In this document: positions 32,714 to 40,745 of the stretch, one piece after another
How positions within the stretch are numbered: position 1 is the stretch's first letter
Layout: each line of letters begins with the position of its first letter
DNA from: Cyanobacteria bacterium REEB459
GTDB taxonomy: Bacteria; Cyanobacteriota; Cyanobacteriia; Phormidesmidales; Phormidesmidaceae
Length of the DNA stretch: 40,745 bases
Assembly (NCBI GenBank): GCA_018970085.1
Contig: JAGWXD010000028.1
Location: 1-40,745 of the forward strand
Reading direction: 5' to 3'
Notes under the pieces: model-generated
Seen by the model: only the letters and a program-made list of their open reading frames with translations
Told to the model about the DNA's origin: nothing
Databases searched by the model: none
Made by a program: the position numbers and the translations under genes

Positions 32714-33460
32714 GTGCAAACGCCCAAAGATCTATACAACTAGAGAAAGAGAATTAGTTAAAATTTCTACTACAGCCCCCATTAAAAGGCCCATTTACCG
32801 CTGGACTGGTTAGGGTTTAACCCGACCAGTGGAGTCTGGGGGGCTCCTGGTGCAGGACCCTGACTAAAGTGAGAAATCCTATCTAGCCGGGGTAGGGTAG
32901 CTACCCTGGCCAAATCAGCTCTAAGATTACCTAAGGACTTGATCAAAGCCTTGAATTCATAGCAAAGTTTTAATCAACCAGAGGGCTATCGCCCCCTGGT
33001 TGGCGGCCAAATCTTTTTACCCTCATTCCTAAATCCGGTCTCCCACAAGGGGCGCAGGGACTTTCAACCGAAAGCCTGGTTCAGAAGATCCTCTCCCCGA
33101 GCAGGAAAGGGCGGTACTTGTTTTGTCGGTCAATCAGGCTTTAGCCCTTTGCCCATCCTACTCACCCTGACAAAGCTGATCCCTACCCAACCGGGGTCTA
33201 CAGGCTGAGAGCAAAGGGCAGTGAGGGGTCTATTTGATAAGTCTATTTGATTAAAGTAAATAACGATCGATCTAACCCTAAGGGCTGGCCGATTCCTCTA
33301 CTTGCCCCGAAACTCAAGCCATAGGTAGGGTCAACCTAACCCATCTAGAGAGCAGCTGTATTATAGGCAACAAGGGTGGAGGTGTTCTAGGGTCAGGAGA
33401 GTGTTCCACAAAACTGCGCCGGGGGCGATCTCGCCACCCAAGATCACTATCCTTGGGGGT
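32714..33460. other. Gene-free stretch with several strong inverted repeats
   Basis: About 750 bases without a supportable gene. Inverted repeats stand out. At 32805-32830 ACTGGT and ACCAGT enclose GGGTT/AACCC. At 32894-32907 there is a perfect 14-bp palindrome, AGGGTAG/CTACCCT. At 32977-33002 AACCAG and CTGGTT enclose GGG/CCC, with a T-rich stretch about 13 bases beyond. A short direct repeat TCTATTTGAT occurs twice near 33229-33250, and the hairpin CTTTCAACCGAAAG is at 33061-33074. The stretch could hold the promoter of the operon at 32078-32713 and a structured RNA; none is recognised. Confidence 0.45.
33061..33074. repeat. Short hairpin repeat CTTTCAACCGAAAG, copy 1
   Basis: The 14-base hairpin sequence (CTTTC/GAAAG around AACC) recurs exactly at 39108-39121, close to the PepSY gene promoter region. 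Flanks differ. It may be a short dispersed repeat; two copies are too few to judge. Confidence 0.3.
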
Positions 33461-34333
33461 TTACTCCCTGGTGATTACGGCGATGGGCCCGCCCTGGAAG
33501 CTGGCGGCGATCGCAGAAAAACGGCGAGTGCCGGTGGGGCTAAACACTATGGACCGGAGGCCACCCTCCTCGGCGTACACCTGCACGGGCCAGAGGATCC
33601 AGCCCAATCGATACCGCTGGAGCAGCAGCGGTGGGGAAAGCTTAGGACGCTGGTGGGCCAGTAGACGTTGGCCCTCCTCCAGGGGCCGCACCTGGGTACG
33701 GGCCAGGCGGTCGTGGACAGCTCGTCCCTGGGGATCGAGGAGGGCGGTCAGCCCCCCGGCTAGGCTGGCGGTCAGGCTCAGCCCCGCCAGGGCCACCAGG
33801 CTAGGGAAGGCGCCACTGCTCAGCCAGACCAGGTAAGCCAAACCCAGGGGTAGGCCCAGGCGCCCCACCCCCTCCCTCAGCATGGCGGCGGTATAGCCCT
33901 GCTGGGGTTGGTGGGGGGCCACCACCTGAAGCCCTAGCCAAGTCTTGGGCAAGGTTTTACCCCTGGTGGCAAGGCCATGGAGGTGGTGCAGCCCCAGGCC
34001 CAGGGGTAGGACCAGAGCGGTAAACCAGAGCAGGTTGGTCAAGGGGGGGACCTGGGTGACCAGGGACTGGCGCGATCTCCCCAGGGGTGCCGCCGTTACC
34101 TCTTGCACCAGGCTAGACAACGGATTCAGGGGCACAAGATGATCCTGGACTTGGTGGCGAACCCAGGCTCCGGCGGCCCAGGGCAGGGCGGTGCTGGCGG
34201 TGAGTAAACTGACCTCCAGGCTGCAGGCCAGTAAGCGGCGTAGGGTTAACTTCCAGGGGGCTGACCAACCTCCCCGCACCGTCGTAGCTGATACCTCAGC
34301 GGTAATGGGTTGGGAGTCGGAGGGCAGGGCCAT
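33461..34333 (-). CDS. RDD-family membrane protein
   Basis: The 290-residue protein shows the RDD layout: WKLTLRRLLACSLEVSLLTAST at the start of the first span with its Arg, a second span (LTNLLWFTALVLPLGLGLHHLHGLATRGKTLPKTWLGLQV, where GKT replaces the usual GKT-P motif context), and a third region with AVHDRLARTQV, the usual end block. The last 85 residues form a hydrophilic tail. RDD proteins have been tied to ion or metabolite transport, without a common substrate. It lies downstream of the His-rich and TPR genes on the same strand with gaps of 90 and 72 bases, so they may be one transcript. Confidence 0.78.
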   Translation of the reverse strand: MALPSDSQPITAEVSATTVRGGWSAPWKLTLRRLLACSLEVSLLTASTALPWAAGAWVRHQVQDHLVPLNPLSSLVQEVTAAPLGRSRQSLVTQVPPLTNLLWFTALVLPLGLGLHHLHGLATRGKTLPKTWLGLQVVAPHQPQQGYTAAMLREGVGRLGLPLGLAYLVWLSSGAFPSLVALAGLSLTASLAGGLTALLDPQGRAVHDRLARTQVRPLEEGQRLLAHQRPKLSPPLLLQRYRLGWILWPVQVYAEEGGLRSIVFSPTGTRRFSAIAASFQGGPIAVITRE

Positions 34334-34423
34334 AGCTAGGGATTACTGGCTACAAACAGAATTGAGTAGGCCCCATTGTAGCCAAAACTCCTCCCGCCGC
34401 TACGGATTTGATCGCGGACCGGT

Positions 34424-34912
34424 TTAGGGAACGACAATCTCCACCGTAGCGGCAATGGGCTGGCCCTGATGGGTCAGGGTCTGATGACGGTTGGTATTCA
34501 AACTCACCGTGATCTGGTGACGCCCCGGCGGCAGATCAACAAGGTGCACCCAGGGACCGTAGATCCGCCCGCTTTTTTCACCGTTAATGGAGAGATGGCC
34601 ATGGCCCACATTGGGCTGATTGGCCTGGTTGACCTGCTCCGGTGCAAACCGAAAGTTGGTGGTTTGAATCTCCAGATTCCAGCCCCGCAGAGCGTCGGTG
34701 TGAACCACCAGGTTAAGGGTGGGTACCGCCTGGCCAGGGGGAACTTCAAAGGTACCGTGGTGGGCATCCCCATGGGGCTGCTGCTGACCATGACCGGTGG
34801 CTGGCTGGGTCTGATGCCCAGGGCTAGGGTTCACCCCCTGGGCAGTGCCTAGACTGAGCCCCAGCACCAGGAGGCTCAGACCTAGCATTTTGAGACGGGA
34901 TGCATAAACCAT
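34424..34912 (-). CDS. Secreted His-rich protein, possible periplasmic metal binder
   Basis: The 162-residue protein has a signal peptide (residues 1-25, MLGLSLLVLGLSLGTAQG). A His/Gln/Gly-rich linker follows (His at 33, 41, 47, 51, 52). A compact beta-type domain then contains GHGHLSINGEKSGRIYGPW (about 103-121) and further His at 123, 132, 143 and 148. The His distribution and export suggest copper or another metal, an idea supported by the neighbouring BlaI/M56 pair, but this is inference. AAGGAG precedes the ATG at 34912. No enzyme family is recognised. Confidence 0.75.
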   Translation of the reverse strand: MVYASRLKMLGLSLLVLGLSLGTAQGVNPSPGHQTQPATGHGQQQPHGDAHHGTFEVPPGQAVPTLNLVVHTDALRGWNLEIQTTNFRFAPEQVNQANQPNVGHGHLSINGEKSGRIYGPWVHLVDLPPGRHQITVSLNTNRHQTLTHQGQPIAATVEIVVP

Positions 34913-34984
34913 AGTCAGAAGACTCCTTGCTTAATGACAGGGTTAGGGCGAAGGGGGGATGCTCCCCAGGGTTGAAGCCGACCC

Positions 34985-35782
34985 TCAACCCGTGGCCAGG
35001 GCCGGGCTTTGCCATGCGTTGAGTAGGGTCAAGATGTAATGGTGTAAGGGGGCCTGCCCCTGGAGTTGGGCGCAGTGGGCGGCCTGTTGCAGGTCCGCCA
35101 GGCCACCGGCATGGTCCCCCAGGGAACGCCGCAGCAGGCCCCGCTTTAGATAGGTGCGGGCATGGTCAGGATCAATGCGGAGTAAGTGGTTCAGGTCCAC
35201 GAGGGCCGCCTCGGTGCGGCCCAATTGGTGGCAGGCGCAACTGTGGTTAAAGAGGGTGCGCACATCCCCCTCCGCCAGGGCCAGGGCCTGGTCAAAGTCC
35301 GCCAGGGCCTGCTCCGGCTGGGCCGCCATCAGCTTGGCCAGACCCCGATCATCGTAGATCTCCACCAGGGCCTCGGGGGTGGCGGCCCGGGCCAGGGCCT
35401 GATCAAAGTCGGCAATGGCGGCGCCAAAGTCGTGCAGGGCCACGTATACCAACCCCCGGTTATAGTAGACTCGAAAGTTTTCCGGAGCCAGGCTAAGGGC
35501 CTGGGTGTCGTCCACCAGGGCCTGGCTGAAGTCCCCCCCATGGTAACGGGCTAGGCCACGGCTGAGCCAGTAATCTGAGTTCTGGTCGGCGATCTCCAGG
35601 GCTTGACTACAGAGGGTAACGGCCTGGTCATAGCCTTGCTGCTGCACCGCCAGTAGACAGCGATCGCCCAGATCGGTCTCAAGATCATGGGCCCTGGCCA
35701 GGGTGGGCCAGCCCAGCAGGACCAGCAGCACCAGCCCTATCCTAAGCAACCAGGCGGACCATGGGATATTTGTTGCCACCAT
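34985..35782 (-). CDS. Exported tetratricopeptide-repeat protein
   Basis: The 265-residue protein starts at ATG 35782, giving a signal peptide or anchor (WSAWLLRIGLVLLVLLGWPTLARA, cleavage likely after ARA). It then has about five to six TPR units, such as SDYWLSRGLARYHGGDFSQALVDDTQALSLAPENF and the next units ending near residue 240. TPRs mediate protein-protein contacts; the partner is unknown. The gene is divergent from the BlaI-like repressor gene and shares its intergenic region, which holds an ATTAC-N5-GTAAT site 77 bases upstream of this start. Confidence 0.82.
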   Translation of the reverse strand: MVATNIPWSAWLLRIGLVLLVLLGWPTLARAHDLETDLGDRCLLAVQQQGYDQAVTLCSQALEIADQNSDYWLSRGLARYHGGDFSQALVDDTQALSLAPENFRVYYNRGLVYVALHDFGAAIADFDQALARAATPEALVEIYDDRGLAKLMAAQPEQALADFDQALALAEGDVRTLFNHSCACHQLGRTEAALVDLNHLLRIDPDHARTYLKRGLLRRSLGDHAGGLADLQQAAHCAQLQGQAPLHHYILTLLNAWQSPALATG

Positions 35783-35859
35783 AGATAATCGATTGATGGG
35801 AAAGTCGTTCGGTATTATCCCGGCAGACCGCTGGGGAGGCAAATGACCACCGGTCAAAT

Positions 35860-35874
35860 ATTACGACCTGTAAT
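35860..35874. promoter_or_regulatory. Inverted repeat ATTAC-N5-GTAAT, probable BlaI/PetR operator (site 1)
   Basis: ATTAC GACCT GTAAT lies between the divergent TPR gene and the BlaI-family repressor gene, 62 bases before the repressor start. BlaI/MecI/CopY repressors are known to bind TTACA/TGTAA-type palindromes, so autoregulation is likely. The same arm sequence and spacing recur at 39171-39185. A -10-like TACACT lies at 35906-35911. Confidence 0.6.
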
Positions 35875-35936
35875 CATGGAAGCTGGCGAAATTAGCCCCA
35901 TCCCTTACACTGGGGATACCCTATCACCCCATCACC

Positions 35937-36398
35937 ATGGCTCCCCTGCCCCGCCATCGCCCCCACCAGCTTTCCCTGGGGCCCCTAGAACGTGAGATCC
36001 TAGAAATTATCTGGGCTCAGGGCAGCGCTACGGTGAGGGAAATTCACGATCAGATCCTGGCGGATCCGGATCGCGACCTTAGTCAGGCGTCGGTGGCCAC
36101 GGTGCTGCAGCGGCTGGTGAAAAAGGGCTGGCTGCAGCGGCAATCTCAGGGCAAGGGGGAGGAGGGTAGGGCGAGATCGGTATACCTGTGGCAGCCTAGG
36201 GTTTCCCAGGATGAGGCCAGGGTGTTGGCGGCCCATGACCAGCTCAAACAATTTTTGGCCCTGGGCCAGCCCGATCTGGTGGCCTCCTTCGCCGACAGTC
36301 TGGATCGGGCGGATCTCGAACAACTGGAGGAGATTGCGGCTCGCCTGCGCCATCTGCGGCAGACCCAGACCCCTCCCCAGACCAGCCAGGAGGACTAA
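35937..36398 (+). CDS. petR: BlaI/CopY-family transcriptional repressor, PetR-like
   Basis: The 153-residue winged-helix regulator has LGPLEREILEIIWAQGSATVREIHDQI (about 14-40), then QASVATVLQRLVKKGWLQRQ (the recognition helix and wing region), and a C-terminal dimerisation helix rich in Leu/Glu. That is the BlaI/MecI/CopY pattern. It abuts an M56 protease gene, as in Synechocystis, where PetR (slr0240) activates petE and represses petJ depending on copper and is degraded by PetP (slr0241). I assign petR from that gene pair and family; no petE or petJ is in the window, so the target genes here are not shown. An ATTAC-N5-GTAAT site lies upstream. Confidence 0.8.
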   Translation: MAPLPRHRPHQLSLGPLEREILEIIWAQGSATVREIHDQILADPDRDLSQASVATVLQRLVKKGWLQRQSQGKGEEGRARSVYLWQPRVSQDEARVLAAHDQLKQFLALGQPDLVASFADSLDRADLEQLEEIAARLRHLRQTQTPPQTSQED

Positions 36399-37277
36399 AT
36401 GCACAGTGGACTACTCCTACTCACCCTGGGCCTGGCCCTGATCGGGAGGTGGTACAGCTATGGTTTACTCCAGGCCCTGCCCTACGACCCCTGGCCACGC
36501 CGCTGGATGGTGACCCTGTGGGTGTTTTGCCTACCGCCCTTAATGTTGCTGGTGGCCGCCGCCACCGTGCTGGTCATGGGGCACCATGGCACCATGATGG
36601 GTCGGCAGGTCAGCCCCCTTGGGTGCTGGCTGGGGCTGGCAATTCTGGCTTGGGGGGCAACGGTGGTGGCGGAAGCGGTGGGACGGGCCCTATACAGCCA
36701 ATGGCGCTGGCGACAGTATGACCTGATCGAACTCCCAGATGGGGGGCAGGCCCGGTGTTTAGAGACCTCTCTACCCGTGGTGGCCCAGGTGGGGCTGGGC
36801 CGATCATCCCTGATAGTCAGCCGCGGTTGGCTAGATCAGCTCACCCCCTCAGAACAACGGGCCACCCTGGCCCACGAACAGGCCCATGCGGATTACCAGG
36901 ATCCCCTGGGGTTTTTGATCCTGGGGATGGTGCGCCGCTTTAGTCTCTGGCTGCCCCACACCCAAAGCCTCTGGGAGGATCTGCTGCTGTTGCGGGAAAT
37001 TCGGGCTGACCAGGCGGCGGCCCGCCACAGTGACCCCCTACTGCTAGCGGAGCTGTTGGTGAAGCTATCGCGCCAGATCAGCCTGGCCTGCCAGGAGCCA
37101 GCCCCAGGAGTCTGGGTGAGTTTTAACCCTGAGTCCTCTCCCCAACGGTTAGAGCTACGGGTCAGGGCCTTAATCAATCCGAACCCCCCCAGCCCTCCGC
37201 TCACCCCAGGGCTAAGTTTGATGGTTTGGTTGACGGTCGCCGCCCTGCCCCTGGCCACCCTGGGACTGCATTCCTAA
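36399..37277 (+). CDS. petP: M56-family membrane metalloprotease, PetP-like
   Basis: The 292-residue protein has several membrane segments and HEQAH (159-163), the HExxH zinc motif; Glu200 in LREIRADQAA is the likely third ligand. This is the BlaR1/MecR1-type protease domain without a beta-lactam sensor domain. M60, H62, H63, M66 and M67 (LVMGHHGTMM) lie near the end of a membrane segment and could bind copper. The ATG at 36399 follows the repressor stop directly (TAA then ATG), preceded by a strong AGGAGG. By analogy with Synechocystis PetP it should cleave the repressor when copper is present; the copper ligand idea is mine. Confidence 0.82.
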   Translation: MHSGLLLLTLGLALIGRWYSYGLLQALPYDPWPRRWMVTLWVFCLPPLMLLVAAATVLVMGHHGTMMGRQVSPLGCWLGLAILAWGATVVAEAVGRALYSQWRWRQYDLIELPDGGQARCLETSLPVVAQVGLGRSSLIVSRGWLDQLTPSEQRATLAHEQAHADYQDPLGFLILGMVRRFSLWLPHTQSLWEDLLLLREIRADQAAARHSDPLLLAELLVKLSRQISLACQEPAPGVWVSFNPESSPQRLELRVRALINPNPPSPPLTPGLSLMVWLTVAALPLATLGLHS

Positions 37278-37619
37278 ACTAGAGGTCGCAACTAGAGATC
37301 AGCACAGCGCCGGTTACCTCTAGGGTCGCTACCGATGGGAGAGCGGTAGGAACGATGGGGAATTTATGGCTCAGGGGGATCTGAATAACCTGCCAGGCTG
37401 AGAAGTTGTTTGAAAAGGGCTCAGGTATAGTTCGCCACTAGGGGGCCCCTAAAATAGCGAATTTACGGTGATTATCCTACTCCATAGGTATAGGTTGAAA
37501 CTCTCTTTGGCTTTTCAAGCAACCTCTCAGTCGGGTTTTGTTGCGCCTAGCAGTGCCATAACGGTGACGGGGTTGAGCGGCCCTGGGGGTATGGGAATGG
37601 TGGGTCTACAACCTGGACC
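37278..37619. other. Intergenic region with a MITE-like element
   Basis: About 340 bases between convergent petP and PepSY genes. The only feature is the inverted-repeat element at 37398-37530, listed separately. No gene is supported. Confidence 0.5.
37398..37530. mobile_element. MITE-like element with 20-bp terminal inverted repeats
   Basis: Left end CTGAGAAGTTGTTTGAAAAG (37398-37417) and right end CTTTTCAAGCAACCTCTCAG (37511-37530) are inverted repeats matching at 18 of 20 positions. The 93 bases between have no gene, so this is a 133-bp non-autonomous element. The tip resembles ends of some cyanobacterial IS5-like insertion sequences, from memory. No clear target duplication was seen. It may also act as a bidirectional terminator for the convergent genes. 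Confidence 0.65.
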
Positions 37620-39068
37620 TCAAGTAAAAATACGCTTGATCGCAGGAACATGGCTCAGGACAAAGCGGTCTAGCAGCAACACAATGATTAGGGAAAGCCC
37701 CACTAAGGGAAACACCAGTCCCAAAACCGCAGTAATTACCAGTGGAAACCGCCAATTTTGGGCATAGGGTAACATGGCTGGAGCACCAATCCCTCCAGTT
37801 CCCTGAGGCCGACGTTGCCACCACATAACAGTTCCCGTAATTGAGAGCAACATGGTAATTAGGGCCGCAACCATCATTAGCAATTGGTTTGGTAATCCAA
37901 AGTATTTCCCCATATGGATAGCCACTCCCATCTCCACCGCTTTAGGAACTAATCCATAGTCTTGCCAACGCACATCTGCTAAAACCTTGCCACTGTATTG
38001 ATCAATGTGCATGGTTACTTCCTGCCTTGGGTCATCTGGAAATGCCGACACCGTGTACACACCCGTTTCACCTTTAGGCAGAACTACACTAAACCCTAGT
38101 GGCGCACCTTGAGCCTGGGCCAGGGTAATCACAGAGTCAATGGTGACTGGTCTACCAGGGACAGCGTCCTGCGGGGAAATGGTGGCACCCTTATGGCTAT
38201 GGCTATTGGAGTTGCTATGGTTAGAAGCGGTGGATTGAGGCATCTGTAGCTGTCCTACTGCCCAGGGGACGACCTGACCTTTCTGATTAAGGGAACCCGT
38301 TAATAGGTTCGATTGAGGAATGTCATCCCACATTTGGGCTGGAAATTTGCCCCACACCTGGGCGAAGGTGTTACCCCAAAAACTAGTCCAGGGTAAACCC
38401 GTAAGAATCAGAAAACCAATTAGAAGCACACCGTAAAACCCAGGGACAGCATGTAAGTCTCGCCAGAAAATTCGTTTGTTTTGGGTCCACAGGCGCGGAG
38501 CCAGGGTGCCTAGGATGGAAAATTGATAGCGTGGCAACCACAAATAAAGCCCCGTAATCAAAAGAACTAATGCCCAGCAGGCTGCCAGTTCCACAACGTA
38601 ATCACCCCACCTGCCAATCAGTAGCTCCCCATGAATTCTCCGGGCGATCGCCTGCAGGTTGTTAACCTCATCGCGATCTCCTAACACCTGCCCCGTGTAA
38701 GGGTTGACGAATGTCATCAGCTCCCGTTGGTCAGATGTGGTCAGCAGCACCTCCGTACTGCGATTGGTGGCCATATTGGGGGTCACCTTAGTCACTACTG
38801 CACCAGGATAGGCTTGTTCAGCAAACTGGACCTGCTCTGAGTAAGGTATGGTAGTGGCACCAGGCTGCACAAACATTAGGTTGTGATACATGGCCGCATC
38901 TAATTGTGGTTTGAACAAATAAATCAGGCCTGTTGCTGCCAAAATCAGCATGAAAGGGATGACAAATAAGCCAGCATAGAAGTGCCAACGCCACACTGTC
39001 CGGTAAAACCGATTGGGGGGAGACTCAGATGACGAGCTCGGATGCCAATCTCTTCTGGAATCGGTCAT
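37620..39068 (-). CDS. PepSY-TM family membrane protein (metal/redox-associated)
   Basis: The 482-residue protein begins after a hydrophilic start with RTVWRWHFYAGLFVIPFMLILAATGLIYLF, the PepSY-TM signature. Two PepSY-like extracytoplasmic regions follow, split by spans at about 145-170 and 200-225 (VELAACWALVLLITGLYLW and FWRDLHAVPGFYGVLLIGFLILTG). Three further spans end the protein. A His/Ser/Asn-rich loop lies before the second PepSY part (NHSNSNSHSHKG). Some members reduce or import iron-siderophore or other metals, but functions differ. The ATG at 39068 is chosen over a TTG seven codons earlier. An ATTAC-N5-GTAAT site lies 102 bases upstream, suggesting control by the neighbouring PetR-like repressor. 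Confidence 0.85.
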   Translation of the reverse strand: MTDSRRDWHPSSSSESPPNRFYRTVWRWHFYAGLFVIPFMLILAATGLIYLFKPQLDAAMYHNLMFVQPGATTIPYSEQVQFAEQAYPGAVVTKVTPNMATNRSTEVLLTTSDQRELMTFVNPYTGQVLGDRDEVNNLQAIARRIHGELLIGRWGDYVVELAACWALVLLITGLYLWLPRYQFSILGTLAPRLWTQNKRIFWRDLHAVPGFYGVLLIGFLILTGLPWTSFWGNTFAQVWGKFPAQMWDDIPQSNLLTGSLNQKGQVVPWAVGQLQMPQSTASNHSNSNSHSHKGATISPQDAVPGRPVTIDSVITLAQAQGAPLGFSVVLPKGETGVYTVSAFPDDPRQEVTMHIDQYSGKVLADVRWQDYGLVPKAVEMGVAIHMGKYFGLPNQLLMMVAALITMLLSITGTVMWWQRRPQGTGGIGAPAMLPYAQNWRFPLVITAVLGLVFPLVGLSLIIVLLLDRFVLSHVPAIKRIFT

Positions 39069-39107
39069 GGTATGCCCCTTACCCGGCAAAAAATACCTAG
39101 GTATTGT

Positions 39108-39121
39108 CTTTCAACCGAAAG
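39108..39121. repeat. Short hairpin repeat CTTTCAACCGAAAG, copy 2
   Basis: Exact match to 33061-33074. It lies in the 5' region of the PepSY gene, next to the palindrome ATACCTAGGTAT at 39093-39104. It could be part of the leader or a dispersed repeat. Confidence 0.3.
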
Positions 39122-39170
39122 GGCATATCAACAGACATAGGGTCAAGCAACGATATCCTGGGCCATCATT

Positions 39171-39185
39171 ATTACAACTCGTAAT
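39171..39185. promoter_or_regulatory. Inverted repeat ATTAC-N5-GTAAT, probable BlaI/PetR operator (site 2)
   Basis: ATTAC AACTC GTAAT has the same arms and the same five-base spacing as site 1 at 35860-35874. On the minus strand TTGTAA inside the site could serve as a -35 box with TATCGT 16 bases on as a weak -10, so a bound repressor would block transcription of the PepSY gene. The promoter boxes are tentative; the repeat itself is exact. Confidence 0.58.
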
Positions 39186-39914
39186 AGTTCAGTTGAGGTA
39201 GTGATCAGGAGTCAGTAGAAGATGATGTATAAGCGTGATCAGAATTTTGTGTAAATCCTGGTTTCGGCAACCAGGAAACAATGGTTGCAGCCTGTTCTAC
39301 CTCGCGGTTCTCTGCACACTCCCTAATTTCTTTTACCGGGTGGGCGGCCGATCGCGCTTCGCTTGGCTCTCAGCTTGTAGACCCCGGTTACGTGGAGAGA
39401 CCCTTCCTATGGGGGAAACCTGGGCGGTAAGGGCTCCTGACTCCTGACCACTGATTACTGACCACTAGTTAAGCCAGATGGCGGTTGATTGGTTGGTGGG
39501 TTTCTGGTGAAGGGATGACGAGGATCACGCGATCGTGATAAAAAGTCGGCTAAGCTAAGCTGTAGAATAGATCCCAAGGACTCAGCTTAAGCCAAGCTTC
39601 TGCATCTGCCATCACTGCTCTCTAGATCAATCAGGACGATTATTTTACTTTTTATCGGTAATTTGAGGTGTTTTAACTCATCAGGTCTGAAGATCTTGCC
39701 CCAGGGTTTTACGCCGATGACTGCTCTATGGGCACTTTATCGGCCAGGGCATCTACCCTTAGGATGCCAAGGGTGGGTAGTTTGGTGAACTGATTAAGTG
39801 ATTTTCCACTTTCTGAGGAATTGTGTAGAAGTTTTAGGATATTGGTTTACTCCATTTGGACGGCTTGCAATGCAATAGTAGCTGAAAGACTTTAGTGTGG
39901 AAGGATGGTTAAAG

Positions 39915-40745
39915 ATGGGAAAGAAGTATCGATCAAAAAAGAGCAATGATGGCGCAGCTTTCACGGCTATATTTATACTTATTGTAATAGGATTTATATA
40001 TAACCACATTAATACCTTTATAATTCTTCTTGTCATTATTCTGACAATCATAACTACCATATCAATTATATTAAAGCTTATAAAATATTGGAAAGCTAAG
40101 CGAATAAAGCAGAAGCAAGAGTTTCTACGAATCCAAGCTCAAGAAGAAGTCAGAAAGGCAAAAGAACGTCAGGAATTACTAAGAATTCAAGCACGAGAGG
40201 ATCTTTATAAAAAACTAAGGGAACTCGGTGTCAGCACTAATAGACAAGATTATGTTATTAGCAATGAAGATTACAAGCGCGGAAACAAGCGAGAAAGTGA
40301 GTATAGAAAAAAATATTTGCTTTCCTTGCTTAACTTATATGACACTAAGTGTGTTAGGTGTGGAAGAATGGATAATGGACTTGATTTAGACCATTTCTTC
40401 CTTAGTAAGAATTCAGGTGGAAATTTTTCTCTCCTACACAGGGACGGCTATCTTGTTAATAATGCTATTCCCCTATGTCAAAGCTGTAACCGATCTAAGG
40501 GAGACCGGCCTTATGATCACTTTTTTGACAAAGATCAAATATTATTCCTATTCACGAAAAATAGGGAGATGAATTTTTTGTTGAATCAGTTGAAGCCCCA
40601 AGTCGAAGCCCCAATACCTGATAGCGGAACTATACCTATGACTTTACCAGAGGATATAGGTCGCTATATCAACGGACTACCCGATAGCTCGGCATGGCTC
40701 AGGCAACTTATCGTAGACGCTGTAGAAAAAGAACACAACCGTTAG
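39915..40745 (+). CDS. Membrane-anchored HNH-nuclease-like protein
   Basis: The 276-residue protein starts at ATG 39915 (GGAAGGA upstream; a GTG six codons earlier is less likely). Two close hydrophobic segments (about 15-30 and 34-55) are followed by a charged coiled coil with an internal repeat (QEFLRIQAQEE and QELLRIQARED). An HNH domain follows at about 145-205: CVRC, then LDLDHFF (the Asp-His catalytic block), NNAIPLCQSCN and SKGDRP, where the two CxxC pairs would bind zinc. The C-terminal 70 residues are not recognised. The gene is far more AT-rich than its neighbours, suggesting recent transfer. A defence role is plausible but unproven. Confidence 0.8.
   Translation: MGKKYRSKKSNDGAAFTAIFILIVIGFIYNHINTFIILLVIILTIITTISIILKLIKYWKAKRIKQKQEFLRIQAQEEVRKAKERQELLRIQAREDLYKKLRELGVSTNRQDYVISNEDYKRGNKRESEYRKKYLLSLLNLYDTKCVRCGRMDNGLDLDHFFLSKNSGGNFSLLHRDGYLVNNAIPLCQSCNRSKGDRPYDHFFDKDQILFLFTKNREMNFLLNQLKPQVEAPIPDSGTIPMTLPEDIGRYINGLPDSSAWLRQLIVDAVEKEHNR

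What the first reader, a model, noticed from the sequence alone, without database searches (positions are those of the whole stretch)
33461..39185. PetR/PetP-like pair with a shared operator reaching a PepSY gene
A BlaI-family repressor and an M56 membrane protease are adjacent, as in the Synechocystis copper switch PetR/PetP. I found two exact ATTAC-N5-GTAAT sites by eye, one in front of petR and the TPR gene and one in front of the PepSY-TM gene. By chance a fixed 10-base pattern is expected about 0.04 times in a 40-kb window. This suggests a local regulon in which copper-controlled proteolysis of the repressor switches a PepSY membrane protein, a link not known to me.
Basis: partly seen in the sequence, partly recalled or inferred. 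Interest (0 to 1): 0.75.

Follow-up and report, generated by a model that had tools for sequence, protein, structure and literature searches.

The report
PetR copper switch controls PepSY gene
A cyanobacterial copper sensor known for swapping two photosynthetic electron carriers also appears, from DNA sites conserved in related genomes, to control a membrane protein probably used to acquire copper, even where one of the swapped carriers seems to have been lost.

Summary
Both ATTAC-N5-GTAAT sites are real (2 found, 0.01 expected in shuffles), but genome-wide the motif is uninformative (4 sites, reversed control 3). The site before petR is the weaker half of a tandem operator; the conserved half is TTGAC-N5-GTCTTTTGA. 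That occurs exactly 153 times in 192 searched genomes (reversed control 6), tracks petR presence, and in the subset examined most often precedes petJ (cytochrome c6), which PetR activates in Synechocystis. Representatives of other downstream groups are MbnP, TonB receptor, ExbB, cytochrome bd and PepSY_TM. It precedes 22 of 23 PepSY genes of this type (up to 2 mismatches); the exception's genome gave no petR hit. The PetR-PepSY link is supported, with a different operator, acting in trans. Its position just upstream of the -35, as at petJ, suggests activation under copper starvation. No petJ was found in this genome, leaving the TPR genes and PepSY as recognised targets. PepSY resembles FoxB, a heme reductase, and may work like CrpH. 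There are no binding or expression data.

The parts
35937..36398 (+). petR: BlaI/CopY-family transcription factor, the only Penicillinase_R hit in the genome
   Evidence: PF03965 91 bits; single genomic hit; matches in 127 of 192 genomes of the relatives search, own genome included
36399..37277 (+). petP: BlaR/M56-like membrane protease, directly following petR, HEQAH and EIRAD motifs
   Evidence: HE[QE]AH and E.RAD present in all 21 PetP sequences compared; Pfam M56 weak: E=0.14 for this protein, E=4.3e-6 for the L055 ortholog
35839..35857 (-). PetR-type dyad 1 before the TPR gene and petR: TTGACCGGTGGTCATTTGC, 2 mismatches to TTGAC-N5-GTCTTTTGA; on the minus strand TTGCCT-N17-GATAAT follows (35842-35814)
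35860..35874 (+).
39128..39146 (-). PetR-type dyad 1 before PepSY: TTGACCCTATGTCTGTTGA, 1 mismatch; overlaps -35 TTGATA, then N17 and -10 GACAAT (39103-39108)
   Evidence: a site with up to 2 mismatches lies within 300 bp upstream of 21 of the 22 other PepSY genes
39171..39185 (+).
37620..39089 (-). PepSY_TM membrane protein (likely start ATG at 39068), FoxB-like, invariant H36 H153 H213 H392 in ORF numbering, His-rich loop
   Evidence: PF03929 252 bits; PDB 7abw FoxB E=1.3e-6; alignment of 13
34985..35857 (-). TPR protein with a signal-like N-terminus (likely start ATG at 35782); directly behind the operator where petJ lies in relatives
34424..34912 (-). p162: small protein of unknown function with a signal-like N-terminus; its relatives lie directly behind an exact site in 5 other loci
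33461..34333 (-). RDD-family membrane protein, possibly the end of the TPR-p162 operon
   Evidence: PF06271; found near petR in none of 20 fetched relatives' loci

Best explanation
PetR and PetP form the cyanobacterial copper switch. When copper is scarce PetP is inactive and PetR accumulates; with copper PetP destroys PetR (established in Synechocystis, inferred here). PetR binds TTGAC-N5-GTC dyads placed just upstream of the -35 element (inferred from comparative genomics). In this genus the dyad commonly lies between petR and a divergent petJ-TPR-p162 group. In this genome no petJ was found, the dyad directly precedes the TPR and p162 genes, and a second copy precedes the PepSY_TM gene 3 kb away. 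The likeliest outcome is activation of PepSY at low copper (inferred from geometry shared with petJ). The PepSY protein is most likely a heme-containing transmembrane reductase helping copper acquisition or delivery in the periplasm (inferred from FoxB and CrpH).
For: Exact TTGAC-N5-GTCTTTTGA: 153 sites in 192 genomes (table, summed) against 6 for the reversed control. petR and site co-occur: 91 genomes both, 36 petR only, 8 site only, 57 neither; Fisher p=1.4e-15, not corrected for phylogeny. Of 108 sites with an assigned downstream ORF, 31 fall in the petJ cluster (representative over the NF045930 PetJ cut-off). PepSY: 22 of 23 genes in 22 genomes have a site with up to 2 mismatches within 300 bp upstream, 17 exact. 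The exception, G081, has 7 mismatches and no petR hit. Random 300-bp windows of loci L052-L108: 33 of 4000 reach 2 mismatches, real sites left in. In the window's genome 2 places have 1 mismatch and none is exact; one of the 2 is the PepSY promoter. In G008 and G011, with no petJ hit, the petR-side dyad has 4 mismatches while the PepSY site is exact. L107, the one non-cyanobacterial hit (Betaproteobacteria; 50% identical), is preceded by a CruR-like ORF with CXXC and RAPP (motif definition PMC9426467).
Against: No binding, expression or copper data for this organism. The window's own sites carry 1 and 2 mismatches, whereas most relatives' are exact; the other one-mismatch place in its genome, G000:C18, has no identified target. 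36 of 127 petR genomes have no exact site (degenerate sites not searched there) and 8 genomes have a site without a petR hit, among them G019, which keeps an exact site before a PepSY frame with two stops. petE shows no such operator in the 30 loci examined, unlike the reported PetR-petE binding in Synechocystis. 16 of 108 downstream ORFs were singletons and some clusters have no obvious copper role. PepSY genomes are related, so counts are not independent. The CruR-like ORF got no Pfam match. The PepSY substrate (Cu or Fe) is not shown; the structure model is poor (pLDDT 58).
Confidence: 0.7

Rival explanations
1. PetR represses PepSY, and copper, by triggering PetR proteolysis, switches PepSY on, like petE in Synechocystis.
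For: BlaI-family proteins are classically repressors (recalled), and the conserved flank of the dyad overlaps the -35 hexamer, where a bound dimer could block polymerase.
Against: The dyad-to--35 geometry is the same as at petJ, the target PetR activates (PMC7896320). Other site-bearing genes (MbnP, cytochrome bd) fit starvation, and the crpH operon is reported as upregulated by copper starvation (PMC13038864).
Confidence: 0.2
2. PepSY is a ferric-siderophore reductase: PetR at low copper raises iron uptake because cytochrome c6 and cytochrome bd need heme iron.
For: Characterised PepSY_TM proteins such as FoxB are ferrisiderophore reductases (PMC13038864; match to 7abw). The one scanned representative of the TonB-receptor cluster is siderophore-receptor-like (TIGR01783, 186 bits, cut-off 223.5).
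Against: PepSY is kept in genomes with no petJ hit (G000, G008, G011, G018). MbnP is a copper-binding family and DUF1775 is copper-linked (recalled). L107 PepSY follows a CruR-like ORF.
Confidence: 0.22
3. Another regulator, not PetR, binds TTGAC-N5-GTCTTTTGA.
For: 8 of 65 genomes without a petR hit have a site; at least one of these (G022) has it at a contig edge, where petR may be unassembled.
Against: Strong co-occurrence with petR; site next to petR in the genus; petJ the commonest target in the subset examined; the window's genome has a single Penicillinase_R hit.
Confidence: 0.06
4. The two ATTAC-N5-GTAAT sites are chance matches and nothing links PetR to PepSY.
For: Genome-wide the motif is no commoner than its reversed control; the 39171 site is not conserved.
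Against: The different, conserved operator at the same promoter.
Confidence: 0.02

Closest known systems
PetR/PetP of Synechocystis sp. PCC 6803 (slr0240/slr0241), Garcia-Canas et al. 2021 (known here through PMC7896320 and PMC13421787)
   Same: Adjacent BlaI-type factor and M56-like membrane protease; petJ divergently next to petR in 11 of 18 same-genus loci; site before petJ in relatives.
   Different: The regulon reported for 6803 encodes four proteins (petE, petJ, slr0601, slr0602; PMC7896320, PMC12382314), no PepSY among them; in this genome petJ was not found, petE carries no site, and PepSY and TPR-p162 do.
CrpH (BP2921) of Bordetella pertussis and its PepSY_TM subfamily (PMC13038864)
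   Same: PepSY_TM family, four invariant His, copper-starvation setting (inferred here); the L107 relative sits behind a CruR-like ORF.
   Different: PetR-type operator instead of CruR control; no CrtA-type TonB transporter recognised beside the window gene; direct sequence comparison with CrpH not done.
FoxB ferrioxamine reductase of Pseudomonas aeruginosa (PDB 7abw)
   Same: Sequence and fold match, His positions.
   Different: About 16-17% identity; iron-siderophore substrate; no copper control known to me.
BlaI/BlaR1, MecI/MecR1 and CopY
   Same: Repressor family; proteolytic partner for BlaI/MecI (recalled).
   Different: Operator TTGAC-N5-GTC rather than TACA-N2-TGTA (recalled); PetR is reported also to activate.

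Membership tests
PetRP copper switch | BlaI-family factor adjacent to M56/BlaR-type membrane protease | tested here: met
   Pfam M56 is sub-threshold for the window protein and its L055 ortholog, the metalloprotease motifs are conserved
PetRP copper switch | petJ or petE beside petR | tested here: inconclusive
   petJ divergent next to petR in 11 of 18 same-genus loci (two of the seven misses are cut by contig ends); absent in the window's own locus and genome
PetRP copper switch | Operator at petJ | tested here: met
   in relatives: 31 of 108 assigned sites precede a petJ-cluster ORF; no petJ in the window's genome to test
PetRP copper switch | Operator at petE | tested here: not met
   none of 30 petE upstream regions has the site within 3 mismatches; one (L295) has a bare GAC-N5-GTC dyad. 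30 loci of 86 genomes with a petE hit, this genus and a few relatives
PetRP copper switch | Copper-dependent proteolysis of PetR by PetP | not testable with these tools
   needs protein experiments
CrpH-type PepSY_TM copper proteins | PepSY_TM architecture with four heme-binding His | tested here: met
   PF03929; H36, H153, H213, H392 invariant in 13 sequences and aligned with His of FoxB; that these FoxB His bind heme was not checked residue by residue
CrpH-type PepSY_TM copper proteins | Membership in the CrpH sequence cluster | not tested
   CrpH sequence was not fetched; only papers read
CrpH-type PepSY_TM copper proteins | Induction by copper starvation | not testable with these tools
   predicted from the PetR-type site; no expression data
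CruR uORF (L107 neighbour) | CXXC and RAPP about 45 residues apart, RAPP three residues from the C-terminus | tested here: met
   47 residues apart and 3 residues from the end
CruR uORF (L107 neighbour) | Match to the DUF2946 profile | tested here: not met
   no Pfam family at E<=0.1, so called CruR-like only

The most novel reading that the evidence does not exclude
PetRP is not only a plastocyanin/cytochrome c6 switch but a general cyanobacterial copper-starvation regulator that activates a scavenging programme (PepSY reductase, TonB receptor and ExbB/TonB, MbnP, DUF1775, secreted TPR/p162 proteins, cytochrome bd). In lineages that lost cytochrome c6, like this one, it survives for that programme alone.
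Probability: 0.5. Interest if true: 0.78.

Novelty: new variant of a known kind. Interest (0 to 1): 0.62.

Why it matters
How cyanobacteria take up copper for plastocyanin and oxidases is poorly known (background knowledge). A conserved PetR-type operator gives a short, testable list of copper-acquisition candidates, a promoter rule, and a genome where the copper switch seems to outlive cytochrome c6. It also ties cyanobacterial PepSY_TM proteins to the copper role recently proposed for CrpH.

Tried and rejected
ATTAC-N5-GTAAT as genome-wide operator: 4 against 3 for the reversed pattern; TTAC-N5-GTAA likewise 29 against 29. petE as a target in this genus: no operator in 30 loci. Own-genome regulon from matches with up to 3 mismatches: 108 forward and 99 reverse against 142 and 158 in the control, uninformative. 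For the 22 places with up to 2 mismatches, one search listed a downstream ORF for only 4, none a copper gene; it says little about the rest. PepSY fold: low confidence; Foldseek still ranks FoxB first, used only as support. Candidate cytochrome c6 at G000:C20: rejected as PetJ (21.8 bits against a cut-off of 135); its N-terminal hydrophobic stretch suggests cytochrome M (recalled). Literature: none of the titles listed (20 of 51 shown; 14 of 15), 63, 64, 65, 84 is about PetR with PepSY, MbnP or TonB genes, and the passages read did not mention such a link. The library is open-access only, and the primary 2021 PetRP paper was not held.

Full report
Observation. Both ATTAC-N5-GTAAT sites are present and improbable within the window. 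In the whole genome the pattern occurs 4 times against 3 for its reverse, so it does not by itself define a regulon.

Finding the true operator. I took 40 loci around petR from relatives. In 19 upstream regions of the nearer set (window included) motif discovery found a dyad AAAAGACAGCCTGTCAA. Of 20 nearer loci, L056 and L071 were dropped because the contig ends close to petR; of the 18 scored, 16 have the dyad with at most one mismatch (13 exact), and in 16 of 18 a second, weaker TTAC-N5-GTAA-like dyad follows at the same offset, usually with 1-2 mismatches. The 20 more distant loci L072-L091 were not scored for this tandem.

The dyad defines a regulon. Read on the other strand it is TTGAC-N5-GTCTTTTGA. 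Exact matches: 153 in 192 genomes against 6 for the reversed pattern (sum). Presence tracks petR: 91 both, 36 petR only, 8 site only, 57 neither, p=1.4e-15, uncorrected for descent. I examined 109 loci holding 115 sites; the remaining listed sites were mostly left out because their coordinates lie next to petR or PepSY, and some matches were not listed, so these counts are not proportions of all sites. Of 108 downstream ORFs, clusters were: petJ 31, DsbD_2 membrane protein 11, TonB-dependent receptor 10, MbnP 6, p162 5, TPR 4, PepSY 4, DUF2231 4, GLTT-repeat protein 3, others of 2-3 including ExbB 2, cytochrome bd 2 and DUF1775 (one locus), and 16 singletons; ten divergent ORFs were petR. One representative of some of these clusters was checked against Pfam or NCBIfam; only 3 of the TonB-receptor cluster, itself included, scored 60 bits or more against its representative. 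Not every cluster has an evident copper role.

PepSY. In one search, 22 of 23 PepSY genes of this type in 22 genomes (own included; some genes fragmentary) have a site with up to 2 mismatches within 300 bp upstream, 17 exact. The exception, G081, has no petR hit. G019 has no petR hit either, yet keeps an exact site before a PepSY frame with two stops. In an overlapping set of 16 named cyanobacterial loci 13 are exact and 3 have one mismatch; the betaproteobacterial hit L107 has none (6 mismatches at best). Random 300-bp windows reach 2 mismatches in 33 of 4000, real sites included. In the window's PepSY promoter the site is at 39128-39146 with one mismatch. PepSY lies directly beside petR in L096 and L098, with a TPR gene between them in L093 and L094, and beside petR by coordinates in G124, G180 and G189 (some of these are probably the same strains). 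In 15 of 20 genomes with both genes they are on different contigs, so the link appears to act in trans.

Direction. At petJ, PepSY and other genes the dyad ends two bases before a TTGACA-like -35. Best TATAAT matches at spacers 16-18 average 3.39 (31 petJ sites), 3.42 (24 sites from PepSY loci) and 3.42 (72 others) against control-window means of 2.56, 2.34 and 2.62; for petJ the highest control window reaches 3.13. In the window: PepSY TTGATA-N17-GACAAT, TPR TTGCCT-N17-GATAAT. PetR activates petJ and represses petE in Synechocystis (PMC7896320, part 1 of 2 of the text read; PMC13421787 passages). The shared geometry argues for activation of PepSY at low copper; this is inference.

A copper switch without cytochrome c6. 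petJ lies beside petR in 11 of 18 same-genus loci, in 9 of them followed by TPR. The window lacks petJ in that slot, and no petJ was found elsewhere: no hit, and the only Cytochrome_CBB3 hit is not PetJ. Among 20 petR-bearing genomes of the genus, 7 gave no petJ hit and 4 of those 7 carry PepSY, against 3 of 13 with petJ (assemblies are 84-100% complete). In G008 and G011 the petR-side dyad has 4 mismatches but the PepSY site is exact. petE has no operator in 30 loci.

What PepSY does. It is a PepSY_TM protein with four invariant His aligned to His of FoxB (a weak model still ranks FoxB first). CrpH of B. pertussis, a PepSY_TM protein upregulated by copper starvation, needs its periplasmic-side His and is proposed as a copper reductase (PMC13038864; abstract, one section and passages). 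L107 PepSY follows an ORF with CXXC and RAPP motifs 47 residues apart, RAPP three residues from its end, as in CruR (PMC9426467 passages); Pfam did not label it. Copper reduction is therefore favoured over iron reduction, but not shown.

Limits. Most relatives are unnamed and phylogenetically linked; completeness varies; no wet data. The literature searches cover open-access papers only.

Noticed in passing
window 33180-33221 and 39357-39398: A 42-nt inverted repeat, 81% complementary, flanks the whole petRP/PepSY region; could be a dispersed intergenic repeat.
   Followed up: no
window 39897-40745: ORF with a hydrophobic N-terminal stretch and a sub-threshold HNH match at the contig end.
   Followed up: no
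L120 (G019:C52), L114 (G124), L126 (G035), L130 (G049), L098: PepSY frames with in-frame stops in a few genomes; G019 also has no petR hit.
   Followed up: partly
L167 (G097:C75): PetR-type site between divergent ExbB and TonB genes, hinting at a copper-dedicated TonB complex.
   Followed up: partly
L199 and one further locus: PetR-type site 319 and 334 bases before a cytochrome bd oxidase subunit I cluster ORF; L199 confirmed by Pfam.
   Followed up: partly
L006 (G000:C49): petE lies directly behind psbV (TIGR03045 over cut-off); the same pairing was found in 29 of 30 petE loci.
   Followed up: partly
window 34424-34912 and L265, L183, L174, L168, L166: p162 family: protein of unknown function repeatedly placed behind a PetR-type site; only sub-threshold Pfam matches.
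   Followed up: partly
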